A DNA stretch of 64,000 bases, taken from contig NZ_QEKT01000006.1 in NCBI RefSeq assembly GCF_003096575.1, forward strand, positions 1-64,000, given 5' to 3'. Shown one piece after another: positions 7,407 through 14,022 of this stretch. Both the position numbers and the translations under genes were made by a program. The notes beneath the pieces were generated by a model. The model saw nothing but the letters and a program-made list of their open reading frames with translations. It was not told the DNA's origin and made no database searches. Positions within the stretch are counted from its first letter, which is position 1; each line of letters begins with the position of its first letter. Source of the stretch: Convivina intestini (GTDB lineage: Bacteria; Bacillota; Bacilli; Lactobacillales; Lactobacillaceae).

Positions 7407-8996
7407 ATGAATTTTTTAGAAAACTTAGTAAAAGAAAATAAATACCCAATAATATTTATAGGGTCTGGGATAACTAAAAGGTACTTTGAAAATGCTCCTA
7501 CATGGGAAGATTTATTACGTACACTGCTTATTAAAAGTGGCCAAGAGGAAGATGAGTATTACGCTAAATTTGCTGAGTTGTCTTCAAAATACAATCAAGA
7601 TTCTTTTAAAGTATTGACAGAGCTAGCTTTGATAATTGAAAAGGACTATAACAACTCTTTCTGGAGTAAGAAAATATCCATGGATACTTTAACGTTACGG
7701 GAAGCTCATGAACAAGAAATATCCCCATTCAGAGCAGCGATTGCCGAAATATTTTCCAACTTAAAACCCAGATCTGGAGTAGAAGACGAGGTTGAGGACT
7801 TTTCAAAAATGCTGTCAAAGGCACGTATGATTATTACTACAAACTACGATAATCTTATTGAAACATCTTTACAGAAGAATAAGATCAATATCAATGTCCA
7901 TGTTGGAAACGGTGGCCTTTTTGATAGCTCAACTAGTTGGAATGATCTTTATAAGATACATGGCTCTATATCTGAACCAAATTCCATTATGATTACTGAT
8001 AAAGACTATGAAAAAATGAAACGTAGTTCAGTTCTGGTCAATGCTAAAATACTTTCTAGTCTCACTGAGTCTCCCATCATTTTCTTAGGGTACTCTCTAA
8101 CAGATAAAAATGTGCAATCGTTATTGTCAGATTTTAGCGATAATTTACCATACTCCATTGCACAGGCAGCCAATTTAGTTGGTGTTGTTGAATATAAACC
8201 TGGATTATCCGAAATAACTCAGGTAATTAGTCAACAATCCGAGTCAAAGTTATACTATACGAGCATTACTACTGACAATTTCACATCAATTTATCAACAA
8301 ATATATAAAGTTAATCAAGGATATTCACCAAACGAAATATCAAAATTCAAAAATGCATTTAAAGAAATTATCGCAACAAAAGGTCAGGAAGGAAATTTAG
8401 ATACAGTATTAACATCATTTTCGGATCTCAACAACTTGTCAGAAGACATAAAAAATAAAAACATTGTTGTTGCATTTGGTGATAAACGGGTTATTGTAAA
8501 AATCCCAACTGTTATAGAATACTTACTTGATTATTTCTTTAAAGAAAATAACTATCCTATTGAGGCAATGTTGTCCTGTATTACTAATGAAACAAAGCAA
8601 TCCCAATTACCTGTTTCAAAAATTTATAATTCCATTCAACAGAGTGGTTATCGAAAGGAGCTAGTTTCAAACCAAGAAAGACTAGATAGAAATCTACAGT
8701 ACAAATTGAACAATCCAAAAGATATGAACGAATTAACATCTAAAATTCAAAAAATTGGAGTCAAAACAAGCCACCTTCTAGATAATTTAAATACTGACGA
8801 TCCGATGGAAATATTTACTTGTGCTAATACAGAGGTACCATTCGGGGTTAAGATAAGCTACATATCTCTTCATATAAACAACTTTAATCGCGAGAAATTA
8901 GATGCATTTATGAAATATATTTTAAAAGACTATTTAGGTACTAATCACTTAACAACTAATATCAGACGTATGTTCTTGGCTTATGATTTCTTATAA
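7407..8996 (+). CDS. SIR2-like domain protein, probable anti-phage NADase
   Basis: The 529-residue protein has an N-terminal SIR2 fold: PIIFIGSGITKRYF (residues 14-27, nucleotide-binding loop), TWEDLL, IITTNYDNLIE (142-152), the catalytic-type histidine in KIHGSISEP (183-191), and IIFLGYSLTDKNVQSLL (224-240). The C-terminal half (about 280-529) has no domain I can name and would be the sensor or effector-control part. SIR2 domains of this bacterial type deplete NAD+ on phage infection (DSR, Thoeris ThsA and Argonaute-associated systems). No Argonaute, TIR or other partner is adjacent, so it would act alone. It sits in the ssrA island, a usual place for defence cargo. Confidence 0.78.
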   Translation: MNFLENLVKENKYPIIFIGSGITKRYFENAPTWEDLLRTLLIKSGQEEDEYYAKFAELSSKYNQDSFKVLTELALIIEKDYNNSFWSKKISMDTLTLREAHEQEISPFRAAIAEIFSNLKPRSGVEDEVEDFSKMLSKARMIITTNYDNLIETSLQKNKININVHVGNGGLFDSSTSWNDLYKIHGSISEPNSIMITDKDYEKMKRSSVLVNAKILSSLTESPIIFLGYSLTDKNVQSLLSDFSDNLPYSIAQAANLVGVVEYKPGLSEITQVISQQSESKLYYTSITTDNFTSIYQQIYKVNQGYSPNEISKFKNAFKEIIATKGQEGNLDTVLTSFSDLNNLSEDIKNKNIVVAFGDKRVIVKIPTVIEYLLDYFFKENNYPIEAMLSCITNETKQSQLPVSKIYNSIQQSGYRKELVSNQERLDRNLQYKLNNPKDMNELTSKIQKIGVKTSHLLDNLNTDDPMEIFTCANTEVPFGVKISYISLHINNFNREKLDAFMKYILKDYLGTNHLTTNIRRMFLAYDFL

Positions 8997-9198: not shown

Positions 9199-9321
9199 CT
9201 ACTCCCATTGTTCCTTAATGGCCTTGTCGTGTGCTTCTCTGGCCTCTTTGTAGATTTGATAGAGCTTAAATAGTTGCATACTGATACGGTCAATCTGCTC
9301 CAGCTTTCTAGCGTAGGTAGT
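9199..9321 (-). pseudogene. Helical C-terminal remnant of an unknown phage-type gene
   Basis: On the minus strand the frame ending at TAG 9199-9201 reads ARKLEQIDRISMQLFKLYQ, then IYKEAREAHDKAIKEQWE. This amphipathic helical sequence looks like real protein. It is closed upstream by a stop and has no start with a ribosome site. It is probably the 3' end of a deleted gene. Confidence 0.4.
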
Positions 9322-9563
9322 CTAGTGCATTCCCTTTGGCCGTTTGGGTGTGACTGCTAGCAAACTTTAAGACTCCAACTAGTGCAAAAATTGCACGAAC
9401 CACAGCCTAGATTTAGGGATCTATTTTGTGACTTTTTAAGTGTAACCTTATCCCCTTTTTTGTATGCAACCTTTTGCAACAAAGTTGCACACTTTTTCGA
9501 CTTTGTGTGCACAACTTTTTTACCACGGGGATGTACCTTTTTACCGCCTTAAAGCAGTCACAG

Positions 9564-10093: not shown

Positions 10094-10126
10094 AAGACCC
10101 CGTGAGCTGAACTCATGAGGTCTTAT
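10094..10126 (-). terminator. Terminator-like hairpin after the GNAT operon
   Basis: AAGACC (10094-10099) pairs with GGTCTT (10119-10124) and TGAG with CTCA inside. On the minus strand the stem is followed by TTTTTGTTTGTG. It lies about 160 bp beyond the stop of the GNAT gene. Confidence 0.6.
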
Positions 10127-10285
10127 TTATGTAGTTGCCTGTGAGTGGTCAGGCGTTACCACTGAAACATACGCCGTTATTCTTATGCCCGCGGCAGGCG
10201 ATATATAACAGGCCGTATATATCTTAGTTAGCGTAACTAATTACGCCATTATTATCAAATAGTGATGATATTTAGCAAATATAGT
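10127..10285. other. Palindrome-rich 3' region of the GNAT transcript
   Basis: The segment holds several inverted repeats: GGCGT with ACGCC (about 10151-10174), TGCCCGCGGCA near 10186, ATATAT pairs flanking AACAGGCCGT near 10200-10225, and TTAGTT with AACTAA near 10227-10243. No gene is visible. It may be the structured 3' end of the minus-strand transcript. Confidence 0.35.
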
Positions 10286-10864
10286 TTAGTGAATAAAGCT
10301 ACTACTCTTCTCTAACTCTTCATAACCAATGACTAACGTATAACTTTCTTTATAGCTATTTTCTTCAAAGTTATTTAAAAAATCAAACCCATTTTTGATA
10401 TAAAAATCAACTGGATCAGGAAGACTGTCAACGGTTACCCCAGCAATAGCGACATTATACTTGACACGTAAATCAACTACTATGCCGAAAATAAATTGAA
10501 GAATGGCTGTTCCTATATGTGGGCTGTCATCGCTCCCATCATACTGATACAGTTTGTTTACAGATAAATGGTCAATGCTTAATAATGGTAATTGATTATA
10601 CAAACTACTAGCCACACCAAAGGCTTCATTCCCGTGTTTATCCTCTTGATAAGTAACTGTACTAGTAGTGGATAAAGCAAACATCCCCACAACGGTTTTA
10701 CCTATAAGGACAGCACTCAGTGCTGTCTTGTTATATTCTTCCATCTCTCTTGAATATATTTTTATAAAGTCATCAAGGCCAGGGACACCACAGGTATAAC
10801 TTTCTAGCTGACTTGAATCTATTAAAGAATCTGCCGGTACAACCTCAAAAATATCACTCTTCAT
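10286..10864 (-). CDS. GNAT-fold acetyltransferase, probable toxin of a toxin-antitoxin-like pair
   Basis: The 192-residue protein has a GNAT plan: a beta strand VVGMFALSTT, then PLLSIDHLSVNK (strand beta-4), the acetyl-CoA loop in degenerate form (SPHIGTAILQFIFG), and the C-terminal FYIKNGFDFL motif typical of GNAT enzymes. The small gene upstream overlaps it by 11 bp, a usual layout for GNAT toxins such as TacT/AtaT that acetylate aminoacyl-tRNA. The partner is not a clear ribbon-helix-helix protein, so the pair could instead be an ordinary phage acetyltransferase unit. Confidence 0.65.
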   Translation of the reverse strand: MKSDIFEVVPADSLIDSSQLESYTCGVPGLDDFIKIYSREMEEYNKTALSAVLIGKTVVGMFALSTTSTVTYQEDKHGNEAFGVASSLYNQLPLLSIDHLSVNKLYQYDGSDDSPHIGTAILQFIFGIVVDLRVKYNVAIAGVTVDSLPDPVDFYIKNGFDFLNNFEENSYKESYTLVIGYEELEKSSSFIH

Positions 10865-11039
10865 GCTCTAAACTACTTTTAAAGCGCAACACGCTCGTAT
10901 GAGCATTACGAAAACGCTCCCCAACTCGCTTAGCTTTTTCGTTTGCCTCGGTCTTAGTTGGTTTAAAAATCTTACGCAAGCGCTCTACTTGGTTAGTGCT
11001 GTCTATTTTAATTACTACATTATCATTTCTAACTACCAT
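10854..11039 (-). CDS. Small protein overlapping the GNAT gene, possible antitoxin
   Basis: The 61-residue protein starts at an ATG preceded by AAGGAG. It begins with a beta-strand-like NVVIKIDS followed by a helix (NQVERLRKIF) and a basic C-terminal helix. That layout would fit a short DNA-binding antitoxin, but no family motif is certain. Its promoter (TATAAT, 11109-11104 on the minus strand) is straddled by three 10-bp-spaced TTAGTT words, a plausible operator for autoregulation. Function is inferred from context only. Confidence 0.5.
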   Translation of the reverse strand: MVVRNDNVVIKIDSTNQVERLRKIFKPTKTEANEKAKRVGERFRNAHTSVLRFKSSLEHEE

Positions 11040-11103
11040 AGCACGCCACTCCTTCTTCTGTTTATTATCATCTAAAGTCTAACATAAAAAAGTAATATTT
11101 TAG

Positions 11104-11136
11104 ATTATATTAGTTCCTATTAGTTGTTCTTAGTTA
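11104..11136 (-). promoter_or_regulatory. Promoter with three phased repeats before the GNAT pair
   Basis: A TATAAT lies on the minus strand at 11109-11104, about 65 bp upstream of the small gene. TTAGTT occurs at 11110, 11120 and 11130, exactly one DNA turn apart and inside the -10/-35 interval. A bound dimer array here would block the promoter. Confidence 0.5.
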
Positions 11137-11169
11137 TTTATGATACCAAAACTAATGCACTCAAAACAA

Positions 11170-11650
11170 TATTCCACCATGATATTTAACTAAGGCTATC
11201 CAAGGTTGGCACTCCCTTACATGAGGCCTCGTTTCAGGGCGTCATCTTAAATATCTTCGCCACTTCTGGCGAAAGTTACTCTAATGCCATTGATCTAACG
11301 CACTAATTCCGTGCGTCAGGTTGTCTGTGCTAAAGTCGAAAAGCACGACCTTAGGTTATTAATTTATATTGTCCGTTGGTGTCCCTAAGGGGGTCGTGAT
11401 TCGCTACCCCCTTCACCTACTTCATGTCGGTATAGATTGGACTCTCTTTCTAACCTGACTCGGTAGATCACAGTAGCAGGTCTAAGGTGGCAATTTACCA
11501 CCCCAGCTTACTCCACGTCGGGCTAGGTTTAAGCTAGGCCGTTACGTTTCGTTACTCCCTTTCCCCAGACGTGGGGCATATTCATACCCACTTTTGGGCA
11601 CAGTGTTCCCGTTTGTTTCTAAATTGTCCAGTTTAGGACAACAAAGGCCT
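11170..11650 (-). ncRNA. Candidate large structured RNA, class not identified
   Basis: This gene-free segment is full of exact complementary pairs. GATATTTAA (11181-11189) pairs with TTAAATATC (11247-11255), which abuts hairpin TTCGCCA/TGGCGAA (11256-11273). ACGCAC pairs with GTGCGT (11298-11316). GTCAGGTT (11315-11322) pairs at long range with AACCTGAC (11452-11459), overlapping that hairpin by two bases. AAGGGGGT (11387-11394) pairs with ACCCCCTT (11406-11413). CACGACC (11344-11350) can pair with GGTCGTG (11392-11398) as an alternative. GGTGG pairs with CCACC (11486-11502), and CCACGTC (11513-11519) with GACGTGG (11568-11574). Loops are purine-rich when read on the minus strand (GAAAC, GGGAA), which favours that strand. 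Large ornate RNAs (GOLLD, ROOL) are known from LAB prophages and would fit the setting, but I cannot match a consensus. Ends are approximate. Confidence 0.55.
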
Positions 11651-11734
11651 AATAGATTCTAAAATACTGACAAGGTTCTCACACTTTGAGGCGGTATCTA
11701 ATCCTCTGTTTCTTTGTTGACCAGTTTTGGTCAA
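11624..11734. promoter_or_regulatory. Two matched palindromes, possible operators
   Basis: TTGTCCAGTTTAGGACAA (11624-11641) and TTGACCAGTTTTGGTCAA (11717-11734) are 6-bp inverted repeats with nearly the same six-base centre, 93 bp apart. They may bind a dimeric phage-type repressor or be hairpins at the 5' side of the candidate RNA. Confidence 0.5.
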
Positions 11735-12197
11735 TCTGTACCAAATGCGAAGACTAAGAGACCTAAAACACCAATAAAGTTCCCACGATAACAACCAAAA
11801 CAGCCACAAACGCTTATGTATCAACGCTTAAAGTGCCGTCAACTTATTATTTTTTTAGAATATAGCTACTTACTCTAAAATGCGCACGTTTTTAGTTTAA
11901 TAATCGCTAAATCATTGCCATCAATAGATTTATAGCTATCCTAAACATGCAGAAAGCACTCAATAATCGCCCTATTTAGCGCCTTTTTCTGCCAAAAGTG
12001 GCAAAAACACAAATCACTTAACACTGGGCTTTGTCAAGGGTACCCCCCTACCTAAAATTTTCAAAAACTGAACTTTTTTATACGATGACGATATATGAGC
12101 GCTCTCTTCGTCAGAAAAACAAGGGCGGGGGTATCTAGCTTTTTATGTCTGCGTTCGTGTAAATACACCACTGCAAAATAAAAACGCTTAAATCGAA
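11735..12197. other. Gene-free stretch upstream of the candidate RNA
   Basis: No intact gene is seen. On the minus strand TTGACG (11843-11838) with a weak -10 about 16-17 bp on could start the candidate RNA. TGCCA-AAAG-TGGCA lies near 11990-12003. TACCCCCC (12041-12048) and GGGGGTA (12127-12133) are complementary and enclose GACGA (12087-12091) with TCGTC (12108-12112) and the palindrome GAGCGCTC (12097-12104). G-tract regions like this occur near phage cos sites, but nothing here proves that. Confidence 0.4.
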
Positions 12198-12560
12198 TTA
12201 TAAGCGTTCAAACGTTATTAATAGAATTGTTAACATTGCTAATCCCGCCTGCTTAAAGACAAGAGTCTTATCACCACTCGATAGACTTCCGTATAGTGCT
12301 ACTAATACAATATAAATCATAATTGGTAACAGCATTTCAGGCATAAAAAGCACGGCATATAGAATTCCAACACCAATCAAACCATTGTAGATGCCCTGAT
12401 TTTTAAATAGCGTTTGAATATCGTTATCTGCTAATACCTCACTCGATAAATTAAACACCCTACTAGTCGCTTTTGACTGGGTAGCAAACGTCTCTAAATA
12501 CATGATGTAAAAGAATTCTAACGCAACCAAAGTACTAAAAATATTTACTAAATATGTCAT
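12198..12560 (-). CDS. DUF1304 family membrane protein
   Basis: The 120-residue protein matches the DUF1304 plan: VALEFFYIMYLETF near the start, NQGIYNGLIGVGILY in the middle, and a final helix after YGSLSSGDKTLVFKQAG. It has four hydrophobic helices, and the ATG is preceded by GGAGG. DUF1304 proteins are common small membrane proteins of unknown function in lactic acid bacteria. It is an ordinary chromosomal-type gene inside the island, so it is either cargo or a surviving host gene. Confidence 0.8.
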   Translation of the reverse strand: MTYLVNIFSTLVALEFFYIMYLETFATQSKATSRVFNLSSEVLADNDIQTLFKNQGIYNGLIGVGILYAVLFMPEMLLPIMIYIVLVALYGSLSSGDKTLVFKQAGLAMLTILLITFERL

Positions 12561-12739: not shown

Positions 12740-13150
12740 TTACGACCTTATCCCTAGCAAGTAAGTATCATCTAACACTAGCCAGCTCTTAGCCTCCTTG
12801 AGGTGTCTGTTACCTGTCCTGTTACCAAGGGCTAGCCGATACTCAATGTTTATCCAGCTATGGCCTGTGTATCTTAGTTTAATAATCTGTTGATCTAACT
12901 CATCAAACACCTCAAGCCATTCACTAATATACTCCATGACCTCTTTAGTTGTGTTTATGTATGGGTCTTGTTCTAAGACTGCTAAGGTTGTCTCAGTAGT
13001 ATGGCTTTGTTTATTCTTAGCTCTAATGTTACGGTTTACGTCGTCAACATGATTGTGCCCGTGACGTATTTCTAACTCTCGCTGTTTAATCGCTAAGGCC
13101 ATCTTACCCGTGAAGTATGCTTTGAGTATCTTGTCTTTATAATCTGCCAT
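12740..13150 (-). CDS. RinA/ArpU-like phage transcriptional regulator
   Basis: The 136-residue protein has the plan of the small phage late-gene activators. A basic helical N-terminus (residues 1-50) is followed by DQQIIKLRYTGHSWINIEYRL (about 89-109), which has the sigma-70 region-4-like helix-turn-helix typical of RinA and ArpU proteins, and NRTGNRHLKEAKSWL as the recognition part. In phages this gene stands between the early region and the terminase genes. Here no terminase follows, which supports a decayed prophage or satellite. The exact subfamily is uncertain. Confidence 0.65.
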   Translation of the reverse strand: MADYKDKILKAYFTGKMALAIKQRELEIRHGHNHVDDVNRNIRAKNKQSHTTETTLAVLEQDPYINTTKEVMEYISEWLEVFDELDQQIIKLRYTGHSWINIEYRLALGNRTGNRHLKEAKSWLVLDDTYLLGIRS

Positions 13151-13450
13151 TCATCCCCCATAACTTAGCTATGTACTGTCTATCTCTGAGCCTGCGTAGT
13201 TGTAACTACGGTGGTCTCACAACCGTGCTTGTAGGCACCCTTGTAACAAGCGTAGCTCTAACTACTCTTGTACCTTAACTGCTTGCTACGTGGATATAAC
13301 CACATACCAACAACAATGAAAGGGAGCCCCAATTTAGGGCGTCCTACTACCTGTGTACTTCCATGCACGGTGGTTCATTGATAACAGGCGTACCTTAGGT
13401 ACACCCGTTTAAAACCGTGGACACATCGACAATATACTAACAAAGTATTT
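13151..13450. other. Gene-free stretch with a chain of small hairpins
   Basis: A row of inverted repeats: CGTAGT/ACTACG (13195-13210), GTGC/GCAC (13225-13238), CTT/AAG around GTAAC (13240-13250), GTGG/CCAC (13290-13303), GGA-GCCC/GGGC-G-TCC (13323-13343) and GTACC/GGTAC (13390-13402). On the minus strand a weak frame of about 35 codons overlaps part of it. It could be a structured leader of the RinA-like gene or a second small RNA. Confidence 0.4.
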
Positions 13451-13667: not shown

Positions 13668-14022
13668 TGGATCTGAGGGGAGTCGAACCCCTGTCCAAAC
13701 CGCCCGATACACCAGCGTCTACATTCTTAGGGCTATCATTTAATTTCATGATGCTGTCCGCCATAGCTCACGGCCCATCAACACCACTAACCTGATTGAT
13801 TTAACCAATTCTTATCAGGTGGGTAAGAATTAGCGGTCTAGCCATTTATTAAACCTAAATTCAAATGCTAGCCTTCAAATTCAGGCTACGGATCACTGGT
13901 TTTTAGGCAGCGATTGCGTAAGAATTATTGTTTTTTGCAGTTAAATGTCTGCCCGTTTTACGCCCGGACGGCGGAATGCAGCCAATGCTCTAAACAGCCT
14001 GTCGAATTCCATAAACAGACCC
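13668..14022 (-). ncRNA. ssrA: Transfer-messenger RNA (tmRNA)
   Basis: The 5' end GGGTCTG (14022-14016) pairs with the 3' acceptor strand CAGATCC (13675-13669), followed by the discriminator A at 13668. CCA is not encoded. The 5' part carries the TTCGACAGG motif and the 3' part a T-arm with GGTTCGACTCCCC. The tag frame (13938-13903) reads AKNNNSYAIAA and TAA. tmRNA rescues stalled ribosomes with SmpB. A TATAAT on the minus strand (14063-14058) can start it inside the end of the accA operon, so the precursor 5' end would be trimmed by RNase P. Its 3' end borders the island. Confidence 0.95.

What the first reader, a model, noticed from the sequence alone, without database searches (positions are those of the whole stretch)
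11170..11650. A 470-nt gene-free segment with interlocking long-range stems: candidate large structured RNA in the ssrA island
At least six exact complementary pairs of 5-9 bp occur, several at long range and nested: 11181-11189/11247-11255 (9 bp) abutting 11256-11262/11267-11273, 11315-11322/11452-11459 (8 bp over 130 nt), 11387-11394/11406-11413 (8 bp) with an alternative at 11344-11350/11392-11398, and 11513-11519/11568-11574. GC content is above the flanks, and loops are purine-rich on the minus strand. No protein frame runs through it. Large ornate RNAs (GOLLD, ROOL) are known from LAB prophages, so the setting fits, but I cannot confirm a known class; it may be new.
Basis: partly seen in the sequence, partly recalled or inferred. 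Interest (0 to 1): 0.78.

Follow-up and report, generated by a model that had tools for sequence, protein, structure and literature searches.

The report
Satellite array of phage-antirepressor palindromes
The "structured RNA" is better read as a gene-free row of varied DNA palindromes in a degraded phage satellite, and several of those palindromes recur inside the antirepressor genes of other phages, as if the satellite carried a set of binding sites for its rivals' and helpers' regulators.

Summary
The stems reported are exact, but the long-range ones are near chance and are not conserved. The local hairpins are real: 7 perfect ones in 11040-12260 against 1.3 in shuffles. Rfam finds nothing. 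The segment lies in a decayed cos-type phage satellite at ssrA (genus Convivina): Alt-like activator, cargo gene, a block shared with prophage cos regions, then the hairpin array, a GNAT toxin-like pair and a zinc-ribbon remnant. Homologous arrays sit in Convivina and Fructobacillus satellites; related modules occur in Lactococcus satellites. Modules are shuffled and interrupted by genes. The palindromes recur inside phage antirepressor genes (Bro-N), at codons of hypervariable segments: 8 of 28 distinct array palindromes match exactly (30 hits in 126 kb of antirepressor genes, 0 in 334 kb of other genes from the same loci; letter-shuffled arms average 0.5, maximum 3). In the window's own genome TTGTCC-N6-GGACAA occurs only in two arrays and two prophage antirepressor genes. 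In Fructobacillus a second array precedes the Alt gene, with a palindrome a fixed 14 nt from TATAAT. G-U pairs are not favoured over A-C, so I read these as DNA sites, probably sensor or decoy operators for antirepressors. Binding and transcription are untested.

The parts
11100..12010 (.). Gene-free palindrome array (the finding widened from 11170-11650)
   Evidence: homologous copies
11986..12007 (.). Palindrome TTTTTGCCA-CTTT-TGGCAGAAA
   Evidence: core CTGCCA-N4-TGGCAG in 7 antirepressor hits; the 22-mer class recurs in Lactococcus satellites
11717..11734 (.). Palindrome TTGACCA-AAAC-TGGTCAA (same CCA-N4-TGG class; no antirepressor match found)
11624..11641 (.). Palindrome TTGTCC-TAAACT-GGACAA; 6-bp arms identical to those in two prophage antirepressor genes of the same genome
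11585..11600 (.). Imperfect palindrome TGCCCA-AAAG-TGGGTA (compare GTGCCCA-GAAG-TGGGCAC in antirepressor genes L536-L539)
11563..11576 (.). Palindrome CCCCA-CGTC-TGGGG (compare TCCCCA-N4-TGGGGA in antirepressor genes)
11387..11413 (.). Palindrome AAGGGGGT-AGCGAATCACG-ACCCCCTT; 24 of 25 letters as in Bro-N gene L034 (..KRGSRITTPSG..)
11330..11354 (.). Palindrome CTAAGGTCG-TGCTTTT-CGACTTTAG (no antirepressor match found)
11295..11319 (.). Palindrome CTGACGCAC-GGAATTA-GTGCGTTAG; compare CTGACGCAC-CAAATCA-GTGCATCAG in Bro-N gene L329; followed on the + strand by GTCAGGT, as in the Fructobacillus Alt promoters
11256..11273 (.). Palindrome TTCGCCA-GAAG-TGGCGAA; arms exact in antirepressor genes L502, L507, L516
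12043..12231 (-). Block shared with prophage cos regions (between HNH nuclease and terminase small-subunit genes in four prophages)
   Evidence: L083, L085, L087, L088; gene names from the sequences of the flanking ORFs
12198..12560 (-). DUF1304 cargo gene
   Evidence: PF06993, 1.1e-26
12740..13150 (-). Alt/ArpU-like late transcription activator
   Evidence: DUF722; PHROG 2198 Alt-like
13151..13450 (-). Second, upstream palindrome-rich stretch before the Alt-like gene (GTACC-TAA-GGTAC at 13402-13390, CGTAGT-TACA-ACTACG at 13210-13195)
   Evidence: fold z -3.6
10286..11039 (-). Small ORF (10854-11039) and GNAT acetyltransferase (10286-10864), toxin-antitoxin-like pair; similar pairs sit inside the arrays of L076, L077 and L111
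9199..9360 (-). Remnant of the zinc-ribbon satellite gene (2 stops)
   Evidence: E 1.8e-14
13668..14022 (-). ssrA (tmRNA), presumed integration site

Best explanation
The segment is part of an array of interrupted DNA palindromes in a decayed cos-type phage satellite. The palindromes are of the same kind as those embedded in the antirepressor genes of temperate phages (Bro-N, in part AntA), where they lie in the codons of the hypervariable segments of the N-terminal domain. The most likely function is a set of binding sites for the antirepressors, or other Bro-network DNA-binding proteins, of helper and competing phages: some act as operators at the promoter of the satellite's late activator (sensing the helper), the rest as decoys that titrate the proteins. 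Shown: satellite context, palindrome array, sharing with antirepressor genes, fixed placement near -35 upstream of Alt in Fructobacillus satellites. Inferred: that antirepressors bind these sites, that binding regulates Alt, and that the downstream array titrates.
For: Array palindromes in antirepressor genes: 8 of 28 match (6+6 bp, same spacing), 30 hits in 126 kb against 0 in 334 kb of other genes of the same loci; letter-shuffled arms give 0.5 on average, maximum 3 of 200. One antirepressor family has a palindrome at one codon site in 45 of 52 genes with 13 different 7-bp arms, in a segment that is hypervariable in protein. Classical Bro-N genes with strong palindromes have them at about nt 134-176. 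Own genome: TTGTCC-N6-GGACAA only at two arrays and two prophage antirepressor genes. BLAST of the arrays against 50,697 phage records returns antirepressor/BRO genes among its few hits. Upstream of Alt in five satellites the last palindrome ends exactly 14 nt before TATAAT with two different sequences; TGACGCCCTAAAACAGGGC and GCACCAAATCAGTGC, from these promoters, are exact in Bro-N genes L326 and L329. A Bro-network protein of a satellite, CapR of PLE, is reported to bind a helper promoter's -35 region (PMC10111431, citing others). G-U is not favoured over A-C.
Against: No binding, transcription or phenotype was measured. Three window palindromes (11717-11734, 11330-11354, 11486-11502) have no antirepressor counterpart in the set searched. 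Conserved linkers between palindromes (such as CCTAGATTAAACCTAGACCGAC and ACAACC..ACTTGTA) are not explained by binding sites alone. Most matches belong to one antirepressor family that was collected with a family member as query. Two Streptococcus satellites examined lack such arrays. The predicted N-domain has no significant structural match, so its DNA-binding mode is not established here. The exact 14-nt promoter spacing is seen in Fructobacillus, not in the window.
Confidence: 0.6

Rival explanations
1. A structured RNA: the array is transcribed (late strand) and its hairpins act as RNA, either as an ornate phage RNA or as a sponge for an RNA-binding antirepressor or for antirepressor mRNA.
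For: Excess hairpins and negative fold z-scores. A terminator-like hairpin (AGCCTTACTC-AAAC-GAGTAGGGCT-ATTTTT) closes many Fructobacillus arrays. Conserved linkers. Immunity RNAs inside Bro-network genes are known in P4-like satellites (PMC10111431). PLE satellites express abundant noncoding RNA (PMC7567579).
Against: No Rfam match, GOLLD, ROOL, C4 and isrK included. G-U no commoner than A-C in stems: 16 against 23 stems in Convivina/Fructobacillus, 2 against 8 in Lactococcus, 8 against 23 in Bro-N genes. Palindromes occur in both loop orientations, near -35 positions and inside coding sequence. Module order is not kept.
Confidence: 0.2
2. Recombination or homing sites: the palindromes mark places where domain-swapping Bro-network genes, or cargo, are exchanged, and the array has grown by such exchange.
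For: Cargo genes sit inside arrays (GNAT pair between modules in L076, L077, L111). Bro-network proteins swap domains and resemble homing endonucleases (PMC10111431). Palindromes lie in the hypervariable segment of antirepressor genes.
Against: Cargo is not found between every pair of palindromes, and no recombinase for such sites was found. It does not explain the fixed 14-nt distance to TATAAT.
Confidence: 0.12
3. Ordinary hairpins: intrinsic terminators and chance palindromes in intergenic DNA.
For: Terminator-like hairpins are present at some ends.
Against: Most palindromes lack a T-run. The sharing with antirepressor genes is far above controls, and the own-genome distribution of one palindrome is restricted to arrays and antirepressor genes.
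Confidence: 0.04

Closest known systems
GOLLD and ROOL RNAs (large ornate phage RNAs, PMC12286853)
   Same: Long gene-free, hairpin-rich stretch in a phage-related element of Lactobacillales, near a tRNA-like gene
   Different: No Rfam match, no conserved overall architecture, modules shuffled and interrupted by genes, palindromes shared with antirepressor coding sequences
Phage-inducible chromosomal islands / phage satellites (Streptococcus Javan satellites, Lactococcus bIL310)
   Same: Small integrated element with late activator, a cos block shared with prophages, cargo genes, zinc-ribbon gene related to Streptococcus satellites
   Different: The palindrome array is not known to me as a PICI feature; the window copy is decayed and no integrase was identified in it
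CapR of PLE, a Bro-network protein that binds the -35 region of a helper promoter (described in PMC10111431)
   Same: Satellite-helper regulation through Bro-network DNA-binding domains at -35 positions
   Different: There the satellite makes the protein and the phage holds the site; here the satellite appears to hold many sites matching phage proteins' own genes
P4/P1 immunity RNAs (CI, C4, seqA) in Bro-network or antirepressor genes
   Same: Regulatory elements lying inside antirepressor-type genes of phages and satellites
   Different: Those are RNAs detected by Rfam C4 and isrK; no such match here, and the elements are palindromes without G-U bias

Membership tests
GOLLD / ROOL | Match to the Rfam covariance model | tested here: not met
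   no match at gathering score in the array, none up to E 5 in 10900-12300 apart from an unrelated snoRNA at E 0.07
GOLLD / ROOL | Conserved multi-domain fold with covarying long-range helices | tested here: not met
   long-range stems near chance and absent or unmatched in homologues
GOLLD / ROOL | Abundant transcript, raised in lytic growth | not testable with these tools
   no expression data
C4 / isrK / CI immunity RNA | Match to Rfam C4 or isrK | tested here: not met
RNA anti-CRISPR (CRISPR-repeat mimic) | Hairpins resemble the host's CRISPR repeats | tested here: not met
   Fructobacillus repeats are unrelated; no Cas1 in the two Convivina genomes
cos-type phage satellite (PICI-like) | Integration at the 3' end of a tRNA or tmRNA gene | tested here: inconclusive
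   Alt-like gene and island lie directly downstream of ssrA; att repeats not mapped
cos-type phage satellite (PICI-like) | Carries a cos region like that of local prophages, without terminase | tested here: met
   block shared with the HNH-TerS intergenic region of four prophages; no TerS or TerL seen beside it in the window
cos-type phage satellite (PICI-like) | Integrase and replication genes | not tested
   not searched systematically in the window; the copy is decayed. bIL310 has an annotated integrase
Array of Bro-network (antirepressor) binding sites | Palindromes shared with antirepressor genes | tested here: met
Array of Bro-network (antirepressor) binding sites | Binding by the cognate protein | not testable with these tools
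   needs gel shift or DAP-seq

The most novel reading that the evidence does not exclude
Phage antirepressors of the Bro network carry a self-recognition code: the codons of their specificity segment form the palindrome that the protein itself binds, so protein and site change together. Phage satellites collect these palindromes into arrays, at the promoter of their late activator and beyond cos, to sense many different helper phages and to titrate their antirepressors.
Probability: 0.4. Interest if true: 0.92.

Novelty: categorically new. Interest (0 to 1): 0.8.

Why it matters
How satellites recognise a changing set of helper phages, and what the very common Bro-N antirepressors bind, are open questions as far as I know. 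A palindrome that is both coding sequence for a hypervariable segment and apparently the target site would give a readable code for antirepressor specificity, testable gene by gene, and the satellite arrays would be a natural catalogue of it.

Tried and rejected
Known RNA families: Rfam with both thresholds, nothing. Weak DNA matches in twelve other Lactobacillaceae loci: mostly coding DNA or tRNA and chance, except those in BRO genes, which became the lead. CRISPR-repeat mimicry: rejected. Homologous arrays in Streptococcus satellites: none in the two examined; satellites of other Lactobacillaceae found through the zinc-ribbon gene lack the array. Coding potential of array palindromes: chance resemblance only. 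RNA-specific pairing (G-U over A-C): not seen. Structural relatives of the antirepressor N-domain in the PDB: none significant. Literature search for palindromes in antirepressor genes or antirepressor decoys in satellites: nothing relevant found in the open-access library.

Full report
OBSERVATION. Against dinucleotide shuffles, stems of 8 bp or more number 3 where 1.4 are expected, so the long-range pairs carry little weight. Perfect local hairpins are in clear excess: 7 in window 11040-12260 against 1.34 on average in mononucleotide shuffles. No protein frame runs through, and G+C is raised. Rfam has no match with either threshold.

SETTING. The genome belongs to the genus of Convivina praedatoris: relative G001 has contig C2 of 302,822 bases, the length of NZ_CAKOET010000002.1. 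Read on the minus strand from ssrA (13668-14022), the order is: a palindrome-rich stretch (13151-13450), an Alt/ArpU-like late activator (12740-13150; PHROG 2198), a DUF1304 gene (12198-12560), a block of about 190 bp (12043-12231), the hairpin array (about 11100-12010), a small ORF with a GNAT gene (10286-11039), and a zinc-ribbon remnant (9199-9360). In four prophages of Fructobacillus the 190-bp block lies exactly between an HNH nuclease gene and the terminase small-subunit gene (L083, L085, L087, L088; gene names recognised from the ORF sequences): it is the cos region. The zinc-ribbon protein has relatives in Streptococcus satellite phages. The element is therefore best read as a decayed cos-type phage satellite. 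In Convivina praedatoris contig C1 the satellite still carries the HNH gene beside cos.

HOMOLOGUES. Related arrays occur in a second copy in the same genome (contig C9), in Convivina praedatoris (C1, C2) and in several Fructobacillus genomes, often more than one per genome. Related hairpin modules occur in Lactococcus satellites, including the known small prophage bIL310 with a 1.1-kb gene-free stretch. Modules are lost, duplicated, reversed and reordered, and a GNAT toxin-like pair is inserted inside some arrays. That is not how a large RNA with one fold behaves.

THE LINK TO ANTIREPRESSORS. Weak database matches of single hairpins kept falling in antirepressor genes. Window palindrome 11387-11413 matches Bro-N gene L034 in 24 of 25 letters; BLAST of the arrays against all phage records returned antirepressor or BRO genes among few hits; Fructobacillus modules matched palindromes in Bro-N genes L314, L315, L316 and L318. 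I then collected 309 distinct antirepressor genes (159 clusters) and other genes from the same loci. Of 28 distinct array palindromes (6+6 bp, fixed spacing), 8 occur in antirepressor genes, 30 hits in 126 kb, and none in 334 kb of the other genes. Shuffling the arm letters gives 0.5 on average and 3 at most in 200 draws. Overall palindrome density is only slightly higher in antirepressor genes (3.3 against 2.8 per kb), so the match is specific.

THE PALINDROMES IN ANTIREPRESSOR GENES. In one Bro-N family the palindrome sits at one codon site in 45 of 52 genes, with a 4-nt spacer and 13 different 7-bp arms; a second site has one in 19 genes. The protein alignment shows that these sites are hypervariable segments of an otherwise conserved N-domain. 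In classical Bro-N genes the strong palindromes lie at about nt 134-176, at the DDEKG-to-TPGG segment. AntA genes show the same in part. AlphaFold places one hypervariable segment at a beta-hairpin and the other after a helix; no PDB fold matches significantly.

OWN GENOME. TTGTCC-N6-GGACAA occurs in the 1.6-Mb genome at four places only: the window array, the C9 array, and two prophage antirepressor genes (C7, C15), with a reversed-pattern control of zero.

PROMOTER PLACEMENT. In Fructobacillus satellites a second array precedes the Alt gene. Its last palindrome ends 14 nt before TATAAT in five satellites with two different sequences, GCACTGATTTAGTGC and GCCCTGTTTTAGGGC. TGACGCCCTAAAACAGGGC is exact in Bro-N gene L326 and GCACCAAATCAGTGC in L329. 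The window palindrome 11295-11319 is followed on the plus strand by the same GTCAGGT box, with a degenerate -10.

DNA OR RNA. If stems were kept as RNA, G-U pairs should outnumber A-C. They do not: 16 stems against 23 in Convivina and Fructobacillus, 2 against 8 in Lactococcus, 8 against 23 in Bro-N genes; at the main antirepressor site 320 Watson-Crick, 7 A-C, 5 G-U, while the second site has 123 Watson-Crick, 10 G-U and no A-C. Together with placement near -35, both loop orientations and coding-sequence copies, DNA sites are favoured. The test has modest power because most stems are perfect and the coding copies are constrained by the protein, and a transcript cannot be excluded.

MECHANISM. 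Most likely the palindromes are binding sites of Bro-network antirepressors. Bro-network proteins are described as domain-swapping DNA-interacting proteins of phages and satellites, and CapR of the PLE satellite binds a helper promoter at -35 (PMC10111431). Trans-acting antirepressors couple the induction of different prophages (PMC3121763). A satellite with many such sites could sense several helpers at its Alt promoter and titrate their antirepressors with the rest. Binding, regulation and titration are inferred.

LIMITS. Three window palindromes have no antirepressor counterpart; conserved linkers are unexplained; many matches come from one antirepressor family; the literature search covered open-access papers only, so novelty is provisional.

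Noticed in passing
window 7407-8996 (+): SIR2-like (PF13289) protein of 529 aa beside the island, a likely anti-phage defence gene.
   Followed up: no
window 10096-10140: Strong hairpin with T-run (AAAGACCCCGTGAGCTGAACTCATGAGGTCTT), probable terminator after the GNAT gene; fold z -3.5.
   Followed up: no
L028 (G000 contig C9) 3934-8620: Second satellite in the same genome carries what look like type I restriction-modification genes (HsdM, HsdS) before its cos/array block and a Panacea-domain antitoxin gene after it.
   Followed up: no
L126 3489-3521, bIL310: Lactococcus arrays also hold a 33-bp stretch found inside the replication-initiator gene (annotated as containing the origin) of P335 phages such as Tuc2009; possible origin mimic.
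   Followed up: partly
L031 4820-4870 and homologues: Conserved linkers CCTAGATTAAACCTAGACCGAC and CCTAAGTTGAACTTAGACCG recur between palindromes in Fructobacillus arrays; one stretch matches, antisense, an antirepressor gene of a Porphyromonas phage.
   Followed up: partly
L027 6992-7495, L031 5331-5978: Zinc-ribbon protein family downstream of the arrays, without Pfam match, shared with Streptococcus satellites and small Psychrobacter plasmids.
   Followed up: partly
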